From: Flavobacteriales bacterium
GTDB taxonomy: Bacteria; Bacteroidota; Bacteroidia; Flavobacteriales_D; CAJJDF01
Length of the DNA stretch: 45,193 nt
Direction of reading: 5' to 3'
Assembly (NCBI GenBank): GCA_020630395.1
Contig: JAHDBM010000022.1
Location: forward strand, 1-45,193
The notes under the pieces were generated by a model. That model saw only the letters and a list, made by a program, of their open reading frames with translations, was not told the origin of the DNA and did no database searches. Of this stretch, positions 17,381 to 26,969 are shown in pieces. Made by a program: the position numbers and the translations under genes. Within the stretch, counting starts at the first letter, position 1. Each line of letters starts with the position of its first letter.

Positions 17381-18439
17381 TTGAAAGGAAAGAAGGAAAT
17401 AGTTATTGGTGTAACCATTATCATAGCAGTGCTATTATTAATATTTGGAATTAATTATTTAAAAGGTATTAATTTTTTTAATAGCAATAGATCATTAGTT
17501 GTAATGTATGATGATGTTCAAACACTAGTGCCGGGTTCTTTAATTAAGTATAAAGGACAACAAGTTGGTGTAGTAGAGGATATATATATTGAGCCAACTT
17601 CTCAAGAAAAATTAATAACGATATTAAATATTGCTGATCCCGATTTAAGAATACCTCACGACAGTAAGGCAAAATTAGTTCCCGAAGCACTTGGAACAAG
17701 TTATATTGAATTAATTTTAGGTCATGATACGCTTAAATTGCCTAATGGAGAATTTAAAGTTTTGCCTAGTAAAGGCCCTTTTTTACAACCAAAAGATACT
17801 ATTACTGCCGATTATAAATTCGGATTAACAGAAATGCTTACATCAAAAGTAGCTCCGGTAGAGGTAAAAGTAAATTCTGTTCTTGGTCGTGTAGATGATC
17901 TATTAGCAAGTGTAGAAAAAGTAGTTGGTAAAGATGGTAAGGAGTTGTCTTCCATTATGTATTCATTAAAAACTTCTTTAAATACATTAAGTAGTACAGT
18001 TTCTGATGCAGATAATTTAATTAAAGCTAATTCACAAACGATTACCAATACGCTTAAAAATGTTGAATCAGTTACTCGTAACCTAAAAAAGAGTAATGAA
18101 AAAGTAACTAAATTAATTGCAAATTTCACAGATTTATCTGATACATTAAAGAATACGGACATAACGGGTACTGTTAAAGAAGCTAAAGAGGCATTAGCAG
18201 GGGTGTCTAAAATGATGGACGAAATTAACAATGGAGACGGTTCAGCACATCAATTAATCTATAACGATAGCCTTATAAATAATGTAAATGGGATGATTCA
18301 AGAGGCTCAAACATTAGTAGAGAATATTAAGGCACATCCTAATAGGTATTTACAGTTTGCTGTATTCGGAAGTAAAGATAAGGGAGTTAAATTAGATTCT
18401 CGTGAAGAGAAAAAATTAAAGCAAATGCTTAAAAATTAG
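17381..18439 (+). CDS. MlaD/MCE-family lipid-transport protein
   Basis: Membrane-anchored substrate-binding component of an Mla-type phospholipid transport system. The 352 residues have one N-terminal transmembrane helix (about 7-25), an MCE domain (about 35-115, with VPGSLIKYKGQQVGVVEDI) and a long helical, Ser/Asn/Thr/Lys-rich tail predicted to form a coiled coil across the periplasm. The start is TTG, 17 bases after the amidase stop; the next in-frame ATG would remove the membrane anchor. The permease (MlaE) and ATPase (MlaF) genes are not in this window. A 17-base palindrome lies right after its stop. Confidence 0.9.
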   Translation: MKGKKEIVIGVTIIIAVLLLIFGINYLKGINFFNSNRSLVVMYDDVQTLVPGSLIKYKGQQVGVVEDIYIEPTSQEKLITILNIADPDLRIPHDSKAKLVPEALGTSYIELILGHDTLKLPNGEFKVLPSKGPFLQPKDTITADYKFGLTEMLTSKVAPVEVKVNSVLGRVDDLLASVEKVVGKDGKELSSIMYSLKTSLNTLSSTVSDADNLIKANSQTITNTLKNVESVTRNLKKSNEKVTKLIANFTDLSDTLKNTDITGTVKEAKEALAGVSKMMDEINNGDGSAHQLIYNDSLINNVNGMIQEAQTLVENIKAHPNRYLQFAVFGSKDKGVKLDSREEKKLKQMLKN

Positions 18440-18441
18440 TT

Positions 18442-18458
18442 TTTAGAATAATTCTAAA
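18442..18458. promoter_or_regulatory. 17-base palindrome between mlaD and the Fe-S operon
   Basis: TTTAGAAT-A-ATTCTAAA is a perfect palindrome around one base, two bases after the mlaD stop and about 85 bases before the Fe-S operon. It is too tight to form an RNA loop, so a dimeric-repressor operator is possible. I found no convincing promoter match nearby, so this is weak. Confidence 0.3.
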
Positions 18459-18541
18459 TAAAATTTGAAAACGATCTATAACCTTAATTAATTTCATTAA
18501 ACACATAGTTTTTACGAAATTCGAATAGTAATTTTTATTAT

Positions 18542-19876
18542 ATGATTAGTAGTATTATTTTTTCAATCCTTTTAATAGGAGGTTTTGCTTGGTTTGGTAT
18601 TAATATCAAACGAATAGCAGCTAACATTAATATTGGACGTGATCTTGATCGATCTGATAACAAAATGGAACGTCTTAGATTAATGACTTTGGTAGCACTT
18701 GGACAAAAGAAAATGTTTAAGAAACCTGTTCCTGCACTTTTGCATACCTTTATTTATGTTGCTTTTTTAATGACTCAAATTGAGCTAATCGAAATTATTA
18801 TTGATGGTTTTACAGGAGGTCATAGATTTTTCTATCCAATGGCAGGAGATTTTTACACCATAGCGATTAGTATTATTGAAATTTTATCAGTGTTAGCCTT
18901 AGTTGCAACATTTGCTTTTTTAGCTAGAAGAAATTTATTAAAAATCCCTCGATTTAGAATGGATGAAATGACTGGATGGCCTAAGCTTGATGGTAACATT
19001 ATTCTTTATATGGAATTTTTATTAGTGATTTTCATATTTACTATGAATGGAACTGATGAAGCATTACACTTAAGAGGAGAAAGCCATGCAGCAGGAGAAG
19101 GTGGATTTGGTTTTGCTATGAGTAGCTGGTATGGACCTGCTATTTTTGGTGGAATGGAAACAGGAACATTACATATATTAGAAAGAGTAGGATGGTGGGG
19201 TCACATTATTATGGTGTTAACTTTTATGAATTACCTTCCATACTCTAAGCATTTTCATATTTTCTTGGCTTTCCCAAATGTGTTTTATGCTAATCTTAAG
19301 CCAAAAGGTAGGCTTACAAACATGGAATCGGTAACAAATGAGGTTAAACTAATGTTTGACCCTAATGCAGATCCTTATGCGGCTGCGCCACCAACTGATC
19401 CTAATGTTGTTCCTCAAGCGTTTGGAGCTAAAGATGTAAACGATCTTACTTGGATGAATTTACTCAATGCTTATACTTGTACAGAATGCGGTAGGTGTAC
19501 AGAGCAATGTCCAGCTAACCAAACAGGGAAATTATTATCTCCAAGAAAAATCATGATGGATACTCGTGATCGTTTAGAAGAGTATGCAACAAATAAGAGA
19601 AAAAATGGTAAAGATGCTGATGATGGTAAAGCATTATTAGGAGATTATATTACGGAAGAAGAATTATGGGCATGTACATCATGTAATGCATGTGTAGAAG
19701 CTTGTCCAGTAAATATTGATCCATTAGCAATTATAGTCGATTTAAGAAGATACTTGGTAATGGAGCAATCTAAAGTACCAACTGAATTAACAGGTATGTT
19801 CAGTAATATTGAAAATAATGGAGCTCCATGGCAATTTGCTCAAGCAGATCGTTTAAAATGGGCAGAGGAGGATTGA
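18542..19876 (+). CDS. membrane-bound (Fe-S) oxidoreductase subunit, HdrC/NarI-like fusion
   Basis: Inner-membrane electron-transfer protein of 444 residues. An N-terminal membrane domain with about five hydrophobic segments (residues 1-260) is followed by a ferredoxin-like domain with two 4Fe-4S motifs, CTECGRCTEQCP (about 312) and CTSCNACVEACP (about 378). This matches heterodisulfide-reductase-like Fe-S proteins that pair with a CCG-domain HdrB-like subunit, here at 20353. In most Bacteroidota I expect the two genes to be adjacent; here a four-helix-bundle gene separates them. The partner and substrate are unknown; a quinone-linked or electron-confurcating role is inference. Confidence 0.9.
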   Translation: MISSIIFSILLIGGFAWFGINIKRIAANINIGRDLDRSDNKMERLRLMTLVALGQKKMFKKPVPALLHTFIYVAFLMTQIELIEIIIDGFTGGHRFFYPMAGDFYTIAISIIEILSVLALVATFAFLARRNLLKIPRFRMDEMTGWPKLDGNIILYMEFLLVIFIFTMNGTDEALHLRGESHAAGEGGFGFAMSSWYGPAIFGGMETGTLHILERVGWWGHIIMVLTFMNYLPYSKHFHIFLAFPNVFYANLKPKGRLTNMESVTNEVKLMFDPNADPYAAAPPTDPNVVPQAFGAKDVNDLTWMNLLNAYTCTECGRCTEQCPANQTGKLLSPRKIMMDTRDRLEEYATNKRKNGKDADDGKALLGDYITEEELWACTSCNACVEACPVNIDPLAIIVDLRRYLVMEQSKVPTELTGMFSNIENNGAPWQFAQADRLKWAEED

Positions 19877-19904
19877 TAGAATAATCAATAACCAATACTG
19901 AATA
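19877..19904 (-). repeat. left heptad array (four units)
   Basis: On the plus strand the units are TAGAATA, ATCAATA, ACCAATA and CTGAATA; on the minus strand they read TATTCAG, TATTGGT, TATTGAT and TATTCTA. The array starts immediately after the TGA of the HdrC-like gene. Confidence 0.7.
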
Positions 19905-19915
19905 TTCATTGATTA

Positions 19916-20299
19916 ATGACTAGAACAAACAATAAATATGATTTAGAAGAAAGACTTATTAACTTTTCTGTTCAAATAATTAAAATGACAGAAAAAATGA
20001 ATAAGTCTTATGCTAGTAATAATTTAGCAAATCAAATTGTTAGGTCTGGTACATCAGTATCTCTAAACTATGGAGAAGCACAGAGTGCAGAATCTAGAAA
20101 GGATTTTATACATAAGATGAAAATTGTTTTAAAAGAATTAAGAGAAACAATAGTATGCTTAAAAATTATTGAAAAAGCTAGATTAACAAGTGAATTAGGT
20201 CAATTAATTAATGAGAATGATGAGTTAATTGCAATTTTTGTAAAAAGTATTGAAACATCAAAACAAAAGTTAATTCAAAAAGGAAATGTTTACACTTAA
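19916..20299 (+). CDS. four helix bundle protein (23S rRNA intervening-sequence / S23 family)
   Basis: A 127-residue all-helical protein of the S23 / 23S rRNA-intervening-sequence-protein family (the same fold as the Avd accessory protein of diversity-generating retroelements). Diagnostic segments are YASNNLANQIVRSGTSVSLNYGEAQSAESRKDFIHKM and LKELRETIVCLKIIEKA, seen here in fragments along residues 36-85. The protein is basic and may bind RNA; its biochemical role is unsettled. It is unrelated to the redox genes on each side. Flanking inverted 7-base repeats suggest it arrived as a unit. No reverse transcriptase or variable repeat is present, so it is not part of a retroelement here. Confidence 0.9.
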   Translation: MTRTNNKYDLEERLINFSVQIIKMTEKMNKSYASNNLANQIVRSGTSVSLNYGEAQSAESRKDFIHKMKIVLKELRETIVCLKIIEKARLTSELGQLINENDELIAIFVKSIETSKQKLIQKGNVYT

Positions 20300-20300
20300 A

Positions 20301-20342
20301 TATTGGATATTGGATATTGGATATTCATTATTGAGTATTGAA
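20301..20342 (+). repeat. right heptad array (six units)
   Basis: Six consecutive 7-base units: TATTGGA three times (20301-20321), then TATTCAT, TATTGAG and TATTGAA. They are inverted relative to the left array, and end ten bases before the ATG of the HdrB-like gene. Confidence 0.8.
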
Positions 20343-20352
20343 ATTATAAATT

Positions 20353-21147
20353 ATGTCACAACCACTAAAAGTACACACAATGGCCGAATACCTTGCAAAA
20401 GGTGAAGTGCCAGAAATATTATTTTGGGTAGGATGCTCAGGAAGTTTTGATGATCGTGCAAAAAAGATTACCAAAGCAATAGCAAAAATCTTAACCAAAG
20501 CAGAAATTAAGTTTGCTGTATTAGGAGCAGAAGAGTCTTGCACTGGAGATCCAGCAAAAAGAGCAGGAAACGAATTTTTGTTTCAAATGCAGGCTATGCA
20601 AAACATACAGGTGTTAAATGGTTATGAAGTAAAAAAAATTGTTACGGGTTGTCCACATTGTTTTAATACCCTTAAAAATGAATACCCAGAGCTAGGAGGT
20701 AACTATGAAGTTATTCATCATACTCAGCTTATTCAGGAGTTAATCAATACCAATAAATTAACCATTTCTGATGGTGAAGCTTTTAAAGGAAAGAAAATTA
20801 CTTTCCATGACCCATGTTACTTAGGTAGAGCGAATGATGTTTATGATGCACCAAGAGAAGTTATCGAAAAATTAGATGCTGAGTTAGTAGAGATGAAAAG
20901 ATGTAGAACTAAAGGGCTATGTTGTGGAGCAGGGGGTGCTCAAATGTTTAAAGAAGCAGAAAAAGGGAACAAAGAGATAAATGTAGAACGTACAGAAGAT
21001 GTTATAGAAACTAAAGCAAATATTGTTGCTACAGGTTGTCCCTTTTGTAATACTATGATGACTGATGGAATTAAACTTGCTGAAAAGGAAGGTTCTGTTG
21101 AAGTATTAGATGTAGCTGAGCTTATTGCTAAGGCAGCTGATTTATAA
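20353..21147 (+). CDS. (Fe-S)-binding protein, heterodisulfide reductase subunit B-like
   Basis: Cytoplasmic 264-residue protein with two cysteine-rich CCG domains, each expected to help bind a noncubane Fe-S cluster. First-domain cysteines are C28, C63, C100 and C103 (VTGCPHC); second-domain ones are C155 (HDPCYLG), C190/C191 (LCCGAGGAQMF), C229 and C232 (ATGCPFC). It is the likely catalytic partner of the membrane Fe-S protein at 18542. The intervening four-helix-bundle element pushes the two apart by 476 bases. A conserved small protein gene follows after two bases. The real electron acceptor or substrate is not known for this Bacteroidota group. Confidence 0.92.
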   Translation: MSQPLKVHTMAEYLAKGEVPEILFWVGCSGSFDDRAKKITKAIAKILTKAEIKFAVLGAEESCTGDPAKRAGNEFLFQMQAMQNIQVLNGYEVKKIVTGCPHCFNTLKNEYPELGGNYEVIHHTQLIQELINTNKLTISDGEAFKGKKITFHDPCYLGRANDVYDAPREVIEKLDAELVEMKRCRTKGLCCGAGGAQMFKEAEKGNKEINVERTEDVIETKANIVATGCPFCNTMMTDGIKLAEKEGSVEVLDVAELIAKAADL

Positions 21148-21149
21148 GA

Positions 21150-21647
21150 ATGCTTATTGAACATCAAATATCACTTGGGGCTTCTGTTGAGGAATTAGCA
21201 AATGATGCTAAATGCTGGGTGTATACTGCTAAGCAGGCGCTAACTGATAAAAATGTTAGTCACGTTACGCAATTAGCAGATGTATTTCTATCTCAATGGG
21301 AATCTCACGGTAAACTATTAAAGGGGGCTTTTTTAATTGTAAAGAATAGATTTTTAGTGGTTTTTGCTGATGCTGAGGGAGATGATATGTGTGGAAGAGC
21401 ACAGGATGGTCAACTTAAATTTATTAAAGAATTAGAAGAGGTTACTGGTAATGTGTTTATTGATAGAATGCTTATTGCTTATGATAATCAGGGTAATATT
21501 GATGTTTTACCATTTACCGATTTAAAATCAAAAATTGCTTTAGGAGATATTAATAAAGAAACTTTTTTTTATAATTCGTTAATTCAAACTAAGCAAGATT
21601 TTCAAACAAATTGGCATATTCCTATAGCCAATAGTTGGTTGGTATAA
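21150..21647 (+). CDS. conserved Bacteroidota protein of unknown function (165 aa)
   Basis: A cytoplasmic 165-residue protein without signal peptide or membrane segment. Recognisable features are a Trp/Tyr-rich N-half (AKCWVYTAKQAL, FLSQWESHGKLLKGAF), a beta-strand pair (FLIVKNRFLVVFAD) and GDDMCGRAQDGQLKF. I recall homologues being labelled 'ABC transporter ATPase', but there is no Walker A or B motif, so that label has no support here. It starts two bases after the HdrB-like stop, so it is probably part of the Fe-S operon and may assist that complex. This is inference from position only. Confidence 0.8.
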   Translation: MLIEHQISLGASVEELANDAKCWVYTAKQALTDKNVSHVTQLADVFLSQWESHGKLLKGAFLIVKNRFLVVFADAEGDDMCGRAQDGQLKFIKELEEVTGNVFIDRMLIAYDNQGNIDVLPFTDLKSKIALGDINKETFFYNSLIQTKQDFQTNWHIPIANSWLV

Positions 21648-21688
21648 ACCATTTTTTACTGATTTATAAGGGGTTTTAAAACTATATG

Positions 21689-21710
21689 CATTTTAGACTA
21701 ACTTAAAATG
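21689..21710 (+). terminator. possible weak terminator before rpoD
   Basis: CATTTTA and TAAAATG pair around an 8-base loop, about 40 bases after the end of the Fe-S operon and before the rpoD promoter. It is AT-rich with no clean T-run, so support is modest. Confidence 0.35.
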
Positions 21711-21732
21711 TTTAATTACGTACACTAAAAGG

Positions 21733-21763
21733 TTGACAATAATAATTTATTGCCGTATTTTTG
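21733..21763 (+). promoter_or_regulatory. rpoD promoter
   Basis: TTGAC (21733-21737) and a perfect TAnnTTTG element, TATTTTTG (21756-21763), with 20 bases between TTG and TA. This is the classic Bacteroidota sigma-ABfr promoter. Transcription would start near 21767, giving a leader of about 16 bases. Confidence 0.8.
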
Positions 21764-21782
21764 CACAAATCAAAAGAGATAG

Positions 21783-22646
21783 ATGAGACAACTAAAAATT
21801 ACTAAATCCATTACTAACAGAGAAAGTCAATCTCTGGACAAGTATTTACAAGAAATTAGCAAGGAGGAGCTTATTACAGCTGATGAGGAGGTTACCTTAG
21901 CACAAAGAATAAAGCAAGGAGACCAAATAGCGTTAGAAAAGCTAATTAAATCAAACTTAAGATTCGTAATTTCTGTTGCTAAACAATATCAAAATCAAGG
22001 ACTAACTTTACCAGATTTAATAAACGAAGGAAATTTAGGGTTAATTAAAGCTGCTCAAAGATTTGATGAAACGAGAGGATTCAAATTTATATCGTATGCT
22101 GTATGGTGGATTCGTCAGTCAATACTTCAAGCATTAGCTGAACAAAGTAGAATTGTTCGTTTGCCTTTAAACCAGGTAGGTTCTTTAAATAAACTAAACA
22201 AAACGTTTTCTAAATTAGAGCAACAATACGAAAGGGCTCCAAGTACTTCTGAACTTGCTGCTGAATTAGATATTACGCAAGATAAAGTTAACGATACATT
22301 AAAAGTAGGTGGTCGTCATGTATCAATGGATGCACCATTCCAAGAAGGAGAAGACAACTCTTTACTAGATGTATTAATCAATAGTGACTCACCAAATGCA
22401 GATATTGATTTGATGAGTGAATCTCTTCATAGAGAAATTAAACGATCATTATCTACTTTATCAGAAAGAGAAAGAGAAGTTATCATCTTATTCTTTGGTA
22501 TTGGAATGAAGCATGGTTTAACTCTTGAAGAAATTGGAACTAAGTTTGATTTAACAAGAGAACGTGTTCGTCAAATTAAAGAAAAAGCAATTAGAAGATT
22601 AAGACAAACTTCTAGAAGTAAAATCCTTAAAACATATTTAGGCTAA
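21783..22646 (+). CDS. rpoD: primary RNA polymerase sigma factor (SigA/RpoD type)
   Basis: The housekeeping sigma factor of Bacteroidota, which recognises TTTG / TAnnTTTG promoters. At 287 residues it is the short form lacking most of region 1.1. Region 1.2 ([21 protein letters not shown]), region 2 ([30 protein letters not shown]), region 3 ([17 protein letters not shown]) and region 4 ([16 protein letters not shown]; helix-turn-helix [21 protein letters not shown]) are all present. It has its own strong promoter, 20 bases upstream. A GAPDH gene starts three bases after the stop, which I find unusual. Confidence 0.97.
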
Positions 22647-24815: not shown

Positions 24816-25871
24816 TTACTGATTATAATAATCACTGATAACAGTTTCTGCTAGTTTGTTTTGTGGGCTATAATCAATTGGGGATAGTCCATTTAGGCTA
24901 TTGGTGTCCATATGCCATAACCAAGAGAATCCACCTCCAAACCAATCTTCTTCCCAAAAAGTTTCAAATACAGCTTTGTAAGCATTTGCCTGTCCTATTT
25001 GATTAACGTTATTGTTATAAGATCCATTCCATGGTTGAAAACCAGCATAATCTCTACTTTGAAATCCAAATTCAGTAAAAACGATAGGTATATTATATTG
25101 GTCGTGAAAATTTTTTAAAGTTGATTTGATAGGAATTAAACCATTTTTACATGCTTGAATTGTTGGTTGCTGAGCACTACTAATCGTAAAGTAAGCATCA
25201 ATACCAATGAAATTTAATTTATTCCAAAAGGATACTTGTGTGTAGTCATCCCAATTTGCACAATAGGTAAGTTGCCCTTTAAATAATTGTTTGCAGGAAT
25301 CTATCATCATATTCCAATAGGAAGGACGATTGGCAACAAAAGATCTTAATTCAACTCCCAAGGCAAAAGCATCTACCTCTAATGAGTCAGATATTTTTAT
25401 GATATCTTGAATATAATCGAAATATGTTGTTTCAAATTTTCGCCAATTTGCTTCAGATGAAAAATTTAGATCACCATGCCATGTTCCTGGAGCACCAGAT
25501 TCAACCCAAACATGTGGCTTTACAAAGACCTTTTGGCCTTTAGCTTTTGCATCAGTAATATATTGTTTTAAACCATCAAGAGTAAAACCATACCAGTAGT
25601 TTTGTCTATCGTAATCAATGCCTCCCGTATCAGATGAGACATAACAATAGGGTACAAGTGCAACCCAATTCGCATGTACATCATTTACTATTTGAAAATC
25701 ATTTGGATGTGGAGCAAATTCATCCATCCATAATGTTATACCATTCATTTTTTTATTTACTTCGGAAGGAGTATGAGTAAAAGGTTTACATTCATCTAAC
25801 TTTTGTTTCTTTTTACATGCTGATAAAGTAAAAAGAAGAACTAAACTCGTTATGTAAATAAAAAGATTCAT
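24816..25871 (-). CDS. glycoside hydrolase lipoprotein, GH113-like (copy 2 of tandem pair)
   Basis: Surface or periplasmic lipoprotein of 351 residues with a TIM-barrel fold like GH113 beta-mannanases and related 'GTA-TIM' proteins. A lipobox (LSAC, C19) follows the signal helix. The barrel has the MNGITLW start, WVALVPY, VFVKPHVWV, the acid/base candidate in FALGVELRS, GIDAYF and the nucleophile candidate Glu in PIVFTEFGF, ending with a WLWH-type aromatic segment. Substrate (mannan or another hexosan) is not provable from sequence. Its ATG overlaps the stop of the upstream paralogue by four bases, so the two are translationally coupled. Confidence 0.8.
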   Translation of the reverse strand: MNLFIYITSLVLLFTLSACKKKQKLDECKPFTHTPSEVNKKMNGITLWMDEFAPHPNDFQIVNDVHANWVALVPYCYVSSDTGGIDYDRQNYWYGFTLDGLKQYITDAKAKGQKVFVKPHVWVESGAPGTWHGDLNFSSEANWRKFETTYFDYIQDIIKISDSLEVDAFALGVELRSFVANRPSYWNMMIDSCKQLFKGQLTYCANWDDYTQVSFWNKLNFIGIDAYFTISSAQQPTIQACKNGLIPIKSTLKNFHDQYNIPIVFTEFGFQSRDYAGFQPWNGSYNNNVNQIGQANAYKAVFETFWEEDWFGGGFSWLWHMDTNSLNGLSPIDYSPQNKLAETVISDYYNQ

Positions 25872-26920
25872 TTTGTTTTCCCGTAAATTTCTTTAATGAA
25901 ATTTTCAACAGGTTTATTCTGTGGTGTGAATCGATTATTGTTATCACCACCAGCAGATGAATGATTAGGAAACCATTTCCATAAAAAACCACCTTTAAAC
26001 CAAGATTCATTCCAAAATTTACAGAATAAGCCTTTATAAGCGTTTATTTGAGCATCATTATTATAAGTAGTATTATTGTTGTCATCCCATGGTTCTTTTC
26101 CTGTAAAATCTACGTTTCGATAACCGTATTCTGTAAATGCTATTGGTTTTTCTGTAGTATTATTTAACTGTTTTAACTTGTTAAAGTCATTCTCCCATCC
26201 GTTATAACAGGATTCAATAGTTGGTGTTTTTTCTTGAGAAACAGGAAAGTATGCATCAATACCTATAAAATCTAGTTTATTCCAAAAGGTAACATATTGA
26301 TAATTATCCCAGTTAGCAGCATAAGTAATTTCTCCAGTATAAACTGCTCTCACAGAATCAATAAGCCTATTCCAAAGGTTGGGTTTGTTTTTAACGACTT
26401 GTTTAAGTTCTACACCAACACAAAATGCTTCAACTTGCAGGGAGTCAGCTATTCGTGCAAAATCTAAAATATAAGCGCGATAGGTATTTTCGAAATTATT
26501 CCAATCTGTTTCGTTATCAAAATTTAAATCTCCAACCCATTTATCCCAAATCCATAAATGAGGTTTAAGTAATATTTTTAATCCTTGTTGTTTAGCTGCA
26601 GCAATATATTCTATAGTGCCTTGTTTGGTTTCTCCATACCATTGTCCACTAGTGCTATATTCTACAGTAGAGCTATTGGATCTAATAAAACCAAAAGGAA
26701 TAATAGCTGTCCAAGAAGCATTAACATTAACAATTGGTCTAAAATGTGAACTATCGAGAGGAGCATTTATTGAAACCAAACTAACACCATTCATTTTATT
26801 TTGATCTTGTGAAACTTCACAAGAAAAAGGAACCGGAGTATTACATAATTCACTATTATCTTTTATCACCTTTTTACAAGAGCATGAGAGTAATATAAAA
26901 AAGAATAAATATTTAACCAT
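25868..26920 (-). CDS. glycoside hydrolase lipoprotein, GH113-like (copy 1 of tandem pair)
   Basis: A 350-residue paralogue of the neighbouring downstream gene with the same order of motifs: MNGVSLV, WTAIIPFGF, ILLKPHLWI, the acid/base candidate in FCVGVELKQ, GIDAYFP and the nucleophile candidate in IAFTEYGYR. I start it at ATG 26920, not the longer frame at 26950, because this yields a tight lipoprotein signal (FFILLSCSC). Both copies keep the two putative catalytic glutamates, so neither looks decayed. The pair follows methylmalonyl-CoA mutase by 63 bases, with a promoter-like -7 box between. Confidence 0.78.
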   Translation of the reverse strand: MVKYLFFFILLSCSCKKVIKDNSELCNTPVPFSCEVSQDQNKMNGVSLVSINAPLDSSHFRPIVNVNASWTAIIPFGFIRSNSSTVEYSTSGQWYGETKQGTIEYIAAAKQQGLKILLKPHLWIWDKWVGDLNFDNETDWNNFENTYRAYILDFARIADSLQVEAFCVGVELKQVVKNKPNLWNRLIDSVRAVYTGEITYAANWDNYQYVTFWNKLDFIGIDAYFPVSQEKTPTIESCYNGWENDFNKLKQLNNTTEKPIAFTEYGYRNVDFTGKEPWDDNNNTTYNNDAQINAYKGLFCKFWNESWFKGGFLWKWFPNHSSAGGDNNNRFTPQNKPVENFIKEIYGKTK

Positions 26921-26969
26921 GAATGTTTTATAATCTAATGGTATAGTCATTTGTATGTGTTAATCCTTA

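What the first reader, a model, noticed from the sequence alone, without database searches (positions are those of the whole stretch)
19877..20342. An intervening-sequence-like element inside an mRNA rather than 23S rRNA
A four-helix-bundle (S23-family) gene sits exactly between two Fe-S subunit genes that I expect to be adjacent in related genomes. Its edges are complementary, as in 23S rRNA intervening sequences, which encode this same family and are excised by RNase III. The transcript could fold its ends together and be cut, separating expression of the HdrC-like and HdrB-like subunits. Insertion and processing are inference; the gene, its position and the complementary ends are visible.
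Basis: partly seen in the sequence, partly recalled or inferred. Interest (0 to 1): 0.72.

Follow-up and report, generated by a model that had tools for sequence, protein, structure and literature searches.

The report
Hairpin-ended S23-protein insert between operon genes
A small element, so far described from ribosomal RNA genes, sits between two enzyme-subunit genes here; the same kind of insert, with ends built of matched 7-letter repeats, turns up between operon genes in at least three bacterial phyla and has no known function.

Summary
A PF05635/TIGR02436 (23S-IVP, 'S23') gene, 19916-20299, lies between an HdrC-like and an HdrB-like gene. Its edges are complementary beyond chance (1 of 2000 shuffles pairs as well). 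No other examined relative carries it: in a same-genus genome the two genes are 18 bp apart, and in 24 of 29 relatives no gene lies between them.

It is one of a widespread kind. I examined 171 IVP genes from Bacteroidota, Cyanobacteria and Xanthomonadaceae. Their flanks are arrays of degenerate heptads or octads. Left and right arrays are complementary within a copy but differ between copies, even at orthologous sites. Many copies lie, mostly in sense, at tight junctions between genes for subunits of one enzyme: sdhA-sdhB, accB-accC, carA-carB, atpA-atpG, sufB-sufC, cysD-cysN, scoA-scoB. IVP lineages are largely site-specific, and the proteins are under purifying selection.

RNase III excision is plausible but untested. 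A test for RNA-level selection (G.U against A.C mismatches) was null, so arm matching may arise at the DNA level. The genome has no detectable reverse transcriptase. The apparent link between S23 genes and the unexplained heptad repeats of cyanobacteria and Xanthomonas is the most novel part. No paper found in the searched library makes it.

The parts
18542..19876 (+). HdrC-like membrane Fe-S subunit gene (upstream host cistron)
   Evidence: Fer4 domains; C-terminal part matches HdrC models below their cut-offs
19880..20341 (+). inserted segment (IVP element), boundaries inferred to within about 10 bp
   Evidence: the same-genus genome G001 has only 18 bp between the two genes; arm pairing
19885..19919 (+). 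left arm: five degenerate heptads, overlapping the IVP start codon
19916..20299 (+). IVP / S23-family four-helix-bundle protein, 127 aa, pI 9.4
20300..20341 (+). right arm: six heptads (ATATTGG x3 then variants), reverse complement of the left arm
20353..21147 (+). HdrB-like CCG-domain subunit gene (downstream host cistron)

Best explanation
This is an IVP element: a cassette of about 460 bp with one gene for a basic, Avd-fold S23-family protein, bounded by inverted arrays of heptad repeats. It was inserted into the hdrC-hdrB junction of this lineage after it split from its sister species, probably from a distant source. Shown: the insert, the paired arms, the general anatomy, strong site-specificity of protein lineages, purifying selection on the protein, and non-homologous duplicate copies that share the arms. 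Inferred: (1) the element persists because inter-cistron positions tolerate an insert whose transcript loops out. RNase III may cut the stem, leaving hdrC and hdrB as separate messages, as it cuts IVSs out of 23S rRNA. (2) The protein binds the heptad arms, as RNA or DNA, and is needed for maintenance or spread of the element. (3) The two arms stay matched at least partly through DNA-level events in hairpin DNA (slippage by one heptad, template switching between arms), because mismatches show no bias towards G.U.
For: Empty site in same-genus G001 (18 bp) and no gene between hdrC and hdrB in 24/29 relatives. The converse at sdhA-sdhB: G001 filled, this genome empty with 14 bp. Arm complementarity over 112 copies: own 13.9, shuffled 7.9, outer flanks 7.5. 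Period-7 autocorrelation at lags 7, 14 and 21, z 12-25, which persists in array-poor genomes. 42 arrays in 56 kb of IVP flank against 0 in 138 kb of outer flank. Arms co-vary at orthologous sites: comM p 2e-4, fadBA p 0.002, sdhAB p 0.009, cysDN p 0.04. IVP tree follows site: 11 changes against 23.4 shuffled; sdhAB one group, support 96/86. Sense 97, antisense 25 between co-directional genes. Subunit pairs named by NCBIfam. Orthologue pairs with measurable dS: dN/dS 0.02-0.37. Duplicate copies in G039 and G008 are alike only over ORF plus arms. The window protein is 57-61% identical to copies in distant genomes, at most 37% to the 26 same-order copies aligned. Same anatomy in Cyanobacteria and Xanthomonadaceae. 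IVS precedent: 28-bp stem, S23 ORF, RNase III cut (PMC4990558).
Against: No RNA data. The G.U/A.C test does not support selection on RNA pairing. About 35% of copies have no significant arm pairing (73 of 112 at p<=0.05), and some arrays are direct rather than inverted (L098, L130). No target duplication or transposition enzyme was seen, so mobility is indirect; the element carries no catalytic domain. Copies share ancestry, so the counts are not independent. Orthologous-site tests were not significant for hmg-hpd (p 0.07) and scoAB (p 0.17).
Confidence: 0.66

Rival explanations
1. Inter-cistron control element: the host keeps the hairpin and IVP gene to set the ratio or stability of two subunits of one complex, with the IVP protein binding its own stem as a regulator.
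For: Recurrent subunit junctions, sense bias, purifying selection, and arm pairing kept while the sequence changes. Cyanobacterial heptad (STRR) hairpins between hupS and hupL were proposed to aid transcript stability or coupling (PMC2670836).
Against: Patchy: sdhA-sdhB is filled in only 5 of the 60 relatives searched, hdrC-hdrB in 1 of 30, and close sisters lack it with no sign of compensation. No G.U bias.
Confidence: 0.2
2. Selfish DNA element related in logic to REP/RAYT: the IVP protein helps mobilise heptad hairpins at the DNA level, and ORF-less arrays are its non-autonomous derivatives. RNA processing is incidental.
For: In genus g10 the two IVP-bearing genomes have 143 and 74 octad matches and four IVP-free congeners have none. 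Array density is 195 per Mb in IVP-rich G024. Paralogues at new loci share their arms. Arrays mostly lack an ORF: 1 of 80 loci has one.
Against: No nuclease, transposase or RT in the element, and no RVT_1 in this genome. IVP lineages stay at one site for long times. IVP-bearing G000 and G007 have few other arrays.
Confidence: 0.25
3. An ordinary small operon gene; its flanking repeats and complementarity are chance or simple slippage.
For: The window copy's pairing alone is modest (shuffle p 0.015).
Against: Copy-specific complementarity and heptad periodicity across 171 genes in three phyla; empty sites.
Confidence: 0.04

Closest known systems
23S rRNA intervening sequences with S23/IVP ORF (Coxiella, Leptospira; PMC4990558)
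   Same: Size (428-444 nt in Coxiella), one S23-family ORF, complementary ends, site-conserved but patchy distribution
   Different: Lies in a protein operon, not in 23S helix 25 or 45; arms are heptad arrays; the protein is under clear purifying selection in its relatives here, whereas the Coxiella ORF is described as decaying
Cyanobacterial STRR heptad hairpins (e.g. hupS-hupL; PMC2670836) and the Nostoc trnL P6b heptads (PMC4476775)
   Same: Degenerate 7-nt units forming a hairpin, between subunit genes of one enzyme in the hup case
   Different: Described without any IVP gene or named protein partner
Xanthomonas GGGAATC and Nostoc GGGGATT heptad arrays (PMC4692102)
   Same: 7-nt arrays, about 70 inverted pairs per Xanthomonas genome; the same unit type flanks IVP at accB-accC in Xanthomonas
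   Different: Mostly ORF-less; the paper discusses G-quadruplexes and does not mention S23 or IVP
Avd of diversity-generating retroelements (4dwl, 8ub7)
   Same: Same helical-bundle fold, Z about 13
   Different: No reverse transcriptase in this genome; no TR/VR repeat was looked for beyond the window's tandem repeats
REP/RAYT systems (own knowledge)
   Same: A rarer protein gene flanked by repeats that are dispersed genome-wide
   Different: IVP is not a Y1 transposase

Membership tests
PF05635 / TIGR02436 (23S_rRNA_IVP, four helix bundle protein) | score above the curated cut-off | tested here: met
   57.7 bits against 33.8; 85.4 against 24
PF05635 / TIGR02436 (23S_rRNA_IVP, four helix bundle protein) | S23 four-helix-bundle fold | tested here: met
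   2rld Z 16.6, 2gsc Z 16.0
23S rRNA intervening sequence | inserted in 23S (or 16S) rRNA | tested here: not met
   lies between two protein genes; no Rfam match in 18000-22000
23S rRNA intervening sequence | complementary ends forming a stem | tested here: met
23S rRNA intervening sequence | excised from the transcript by RNase III | not testable with these tools
   needs RNA ends or an in vitro cleavage assay
Heptad (STRR-type) hairpin | tandem 7-nt units on both arms, complementary | tested here: met
   five left and six right heptads; period-7 signal across the family
Diversity-generating retroelement accessory protein (Avd) | associated reverse transcriptase | tested here: not met
   no RVT_1 in the genome, 98.75% complete
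REP/RAYT | Y1 (REP-associated tyrosine) transposase encoded by the element | tested here: not met
   the element's only gene-sized ORF matches PF05635 and no transposase family

The most novel reading that the evidence does not exclude
S23/IVP genes and the long-unexplained heptanucleotide repeats of bacteria (cyanobacterial STRRs, Xanthomonas GGGAATC, and copy-specific arrays in Bacteroidota) are one system. The IVP protein acts on heptad hairpins, which insert at cistron junctions; ORF-less arrays are its derivatives; the 23S rRNA IVS is one special case of this element class.
Probability: 0.4. Interest if true: 0.87.

Novelty: new variant of a known kind. Interest (0 to 1): 0.7.

Why it matters
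S23/IVP proteins have had solved structures since 2006-2007 and are common across bacteria, yet have no assigned function. Heptad repeats have been reported in cyanobacteria, Xanthomonas and Beggiatoaceae without an explanation. Finding that IVP genes sit inside such arrays, with arms matched copy by copy, at junctions of enzyme-subunit genes in three phyla gives both puzzles a common, testable handle and moves the IVS concept from rRNA to mRNA.

Tried and rejected
23S check: no 23S rRNA in this assembly, so a genomic 23S copy of the element could not be tested. Rfam on the window segment: nothing; on 20 IVP loci with unclear neighbours: only tRNAs, no rRNA. Retro-mobility through a host reverse transcriptase: none detected. 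RNA-level selection by G.U/A.C asymmetry: null. Array side: 80 loci with GGGRATY arrays yield one IVP ORF, so arrays do not simply mark IVP genes. Literature: nine searches in the open-access library found no paper joining S23/IVP with heptad repeats; subscription journals were not searched.

Full report
Observation. The ORF at 19916-20299 (+) is an IVP/S23-family gene: PF05635 at E 1.6e-15 and TIGR02436 at E 2.9e-24. AlphaFold gives four helices at pLDDT 90.9. The nearest solved structures are the S23-family proteins 2rld and 2gsc (Z about 16), followed by the DGR protein Avd (4dwl, Z 13.3), which is only a little above unrelated bundles. The gene lies between an HdrC-like gene (18542-19876) and an HdrB-like gene (20353-21147). 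The left arm is TCAATAA CCAATAC TGAATAT TCATTGA TTAATGA (19885-19919). The right arm read in reverse complement is TCAATAC TCAATAA TGAATAT CCAATAT CCAATAT CCAATAT (20300-20341). The duplex energy is -22.2 kcal/mol; 1 of 2000 shuffles and 1 of 432 same-geometry pairs elsewhere in the window are as low. With a strict threshold, the window's right arm is the only 7/8-nt array in the window plus 334 kb sampled from this genome.

Insertion. The same-genus genome G001 has hdrC and hdrB 18 bp apart. Of 29 relatives whose junction could be read, 24 have no gene between them (gaps -2 to 114 bp), five carry a different ORF, and none carries an IVP gene. The mirror case exists at sdhA-sdhB: G001 carries an IVP element and this genome has 14 bp. 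The window protein is 57-61% identical to several copies in distant genomes but at most 37% identical to the 26 same-order copies aligned with it. That suggests horizontal arrival; this is inference.

A general anatomy. I collected 112 IVP copies from the order. Left and right flanks of one copy are complementary: mean score 13.9, against 7.9 for shuffled flanks and 7.5 for flanks 450 bp further out; 73 of 112 reach p<=0.05. Pairing left of one copy with right of another gives 7.6, so the match is copy-specific. Autocorrelation of the flanks peaks at lags 7, 14 and 21, with a weaker peak at 8 and 16, z 12-25 at the 7-multiples. It remains when the analysis is limited to 50 copies from 17 mostly array-poor genomes. 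Strict arrays: 42 in 56 kb of flanks against none in 138 kb of outer flanks; the outer flanks are largely coding, so the 334 kb genome sample, with none besides the window's own, is the better baseline. In six cyanobacterial and four Xanthomonadaceae genomes the 30 copies show the same: lag-7 identity 0.37 and 0.36 against 0.26, own complementarity 18.2 against 7.4. In Xanthomonas the IVP gene at accB-accC is flanked by GGGAATC-type units, the unexplained repeat of PMC4692102.

Where they sit. Of 164 copies with two readable neighbours, 97 lie in sense and 25 in antisense between co-directional genes; 71 of the sense ones have both gaps within 150 bp (neighbours are ORF calls, not curated genes). 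Recurrent junctions join partners of one complex or pathway. NCBIfam names cysD-cysN, BCCP-accC, carbamoyl-phosphate synthase small-large, 3-oxoacid CoA-transferase A-B, sufB-sufC, atpA-atpG, PDH E1 alpha-E2, sdhA-sdhB, 3-hydroxyacyl-CoA dehydrogenase-thiolase and YifB-priA.

Evolution. IVP proteins cluster by site: 11 changes on the tree against 23.4 in shuffles; the sdhA-sdhB copies from five families form one group, support 96/86. At orthologous sites each species' left arm matches its own right arm better than its orthologues' right arms: comM p 0.0002, fadBA 0.002, sdhAB 0.009, cysDN 0.04; hmg-hpd 0.07 and scoAB 0.17 not significant. dN/dS of orthologue pairs with measurable dS is 0.02-0.37, so the protein is kept by selection. 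In G039 and G008, copies at different loci are similar only over ORF plus arms, which points to duplication or movement of the unit.

Mechanism. Two families of explanation remain. At the RNA level, the element is transcribed in the operon, the arms pair, and RNase III cuts, as shown for the Coxiella IVS (PMC4990558). That fits the sense bias and the shared preference for transcribed positions that tolerate a cut. However, mismatches in the arms show no preference for G.U over A.C on the coding strand (115 against 102, p 0.42), the signature expected if RNA pairing were the selected property. At the DNA level, slippage by heptads and template switching in hairpin DNA would produce copy-specific, strand-symmetric matching without RNA selection. 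Both can be true together. No reverse transcriptase is detectable in this genome, which argues against an Avd-like retro-mechanism here now.

Relation to heptad repeats. In genus g10 the IVP-bearing genomes G039 and G057 hold 143 and 74 octad matches; four IVP-free congeners hold none. G024 (8 IVP matches) has 195 arrays per Mb in a 200-kb sample. IVP-free samples had 0/200 kb, 0/80 kb and one A-rich array in 120 kb; but IVP-bearing G000 and G007 have few arrays beside their IVP copies. Of 80 loci chosen for GGGRATY arrays, only one carries an IVP ORF, next to the array. So arrays are mostly ORF-less, and the link, though suggestive, is not one-to-one. Published hairpins of heptads between hupS and hupL in cyanobacteria (PMC2670836) look like the ORF-less counterpart.

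Verdict. It is not a 23S IVS by membership, because it is not in rRNA, and excision is unproven. It is a new variant: a heptad-armed IVP element of operon junctions, present in at least three phyla.

Noticed in passing
L010, L011, L012, L013, L034 (hdrC-hdrB junction of relatives): A different ORF, with a HAD-phosphatase look (motif YMIDIDGT), occupies the hdrC-hdrB junction in five relatives, so the junction accepts other genes too.
   Followed up: partly
L018, L021, L032 (hdrC-hdrB); L152, L159 (sdhA-sdhB): ORF-less hairpins or heptad stretches of about 75-120 bp (e.g. ACTAAAG-type units in L159) sit at the same junctions where relatives hold IVP elements; possible remnants.
   Followed up: partly
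L412-L421 (genome G024): About 195 heptad arrays of many different motifs per Mb; only 3 of 39 sampled arrays have an inverted partner within 1 kb.
   Followed up: partly
G039 and G057 (L119, L120, L130): A species-specific octad (CATTAGCA) is spread genome-wide in two species and absent in four congeners.
   Followed up: partly
G000:C137:5068-5356 (L005, L006): A broken IVP copy with in-frame stops elsewhere in the same genome.
   Followed up: no
L108, L134, L399: Some IVP genes lie next to tRNA genes.
   Followed up: no
window 24816-26950 (-): Two neighbouring, similar secreted TIM-barrel-like proteins, apparently a tandem duplication.
   Followed up: no
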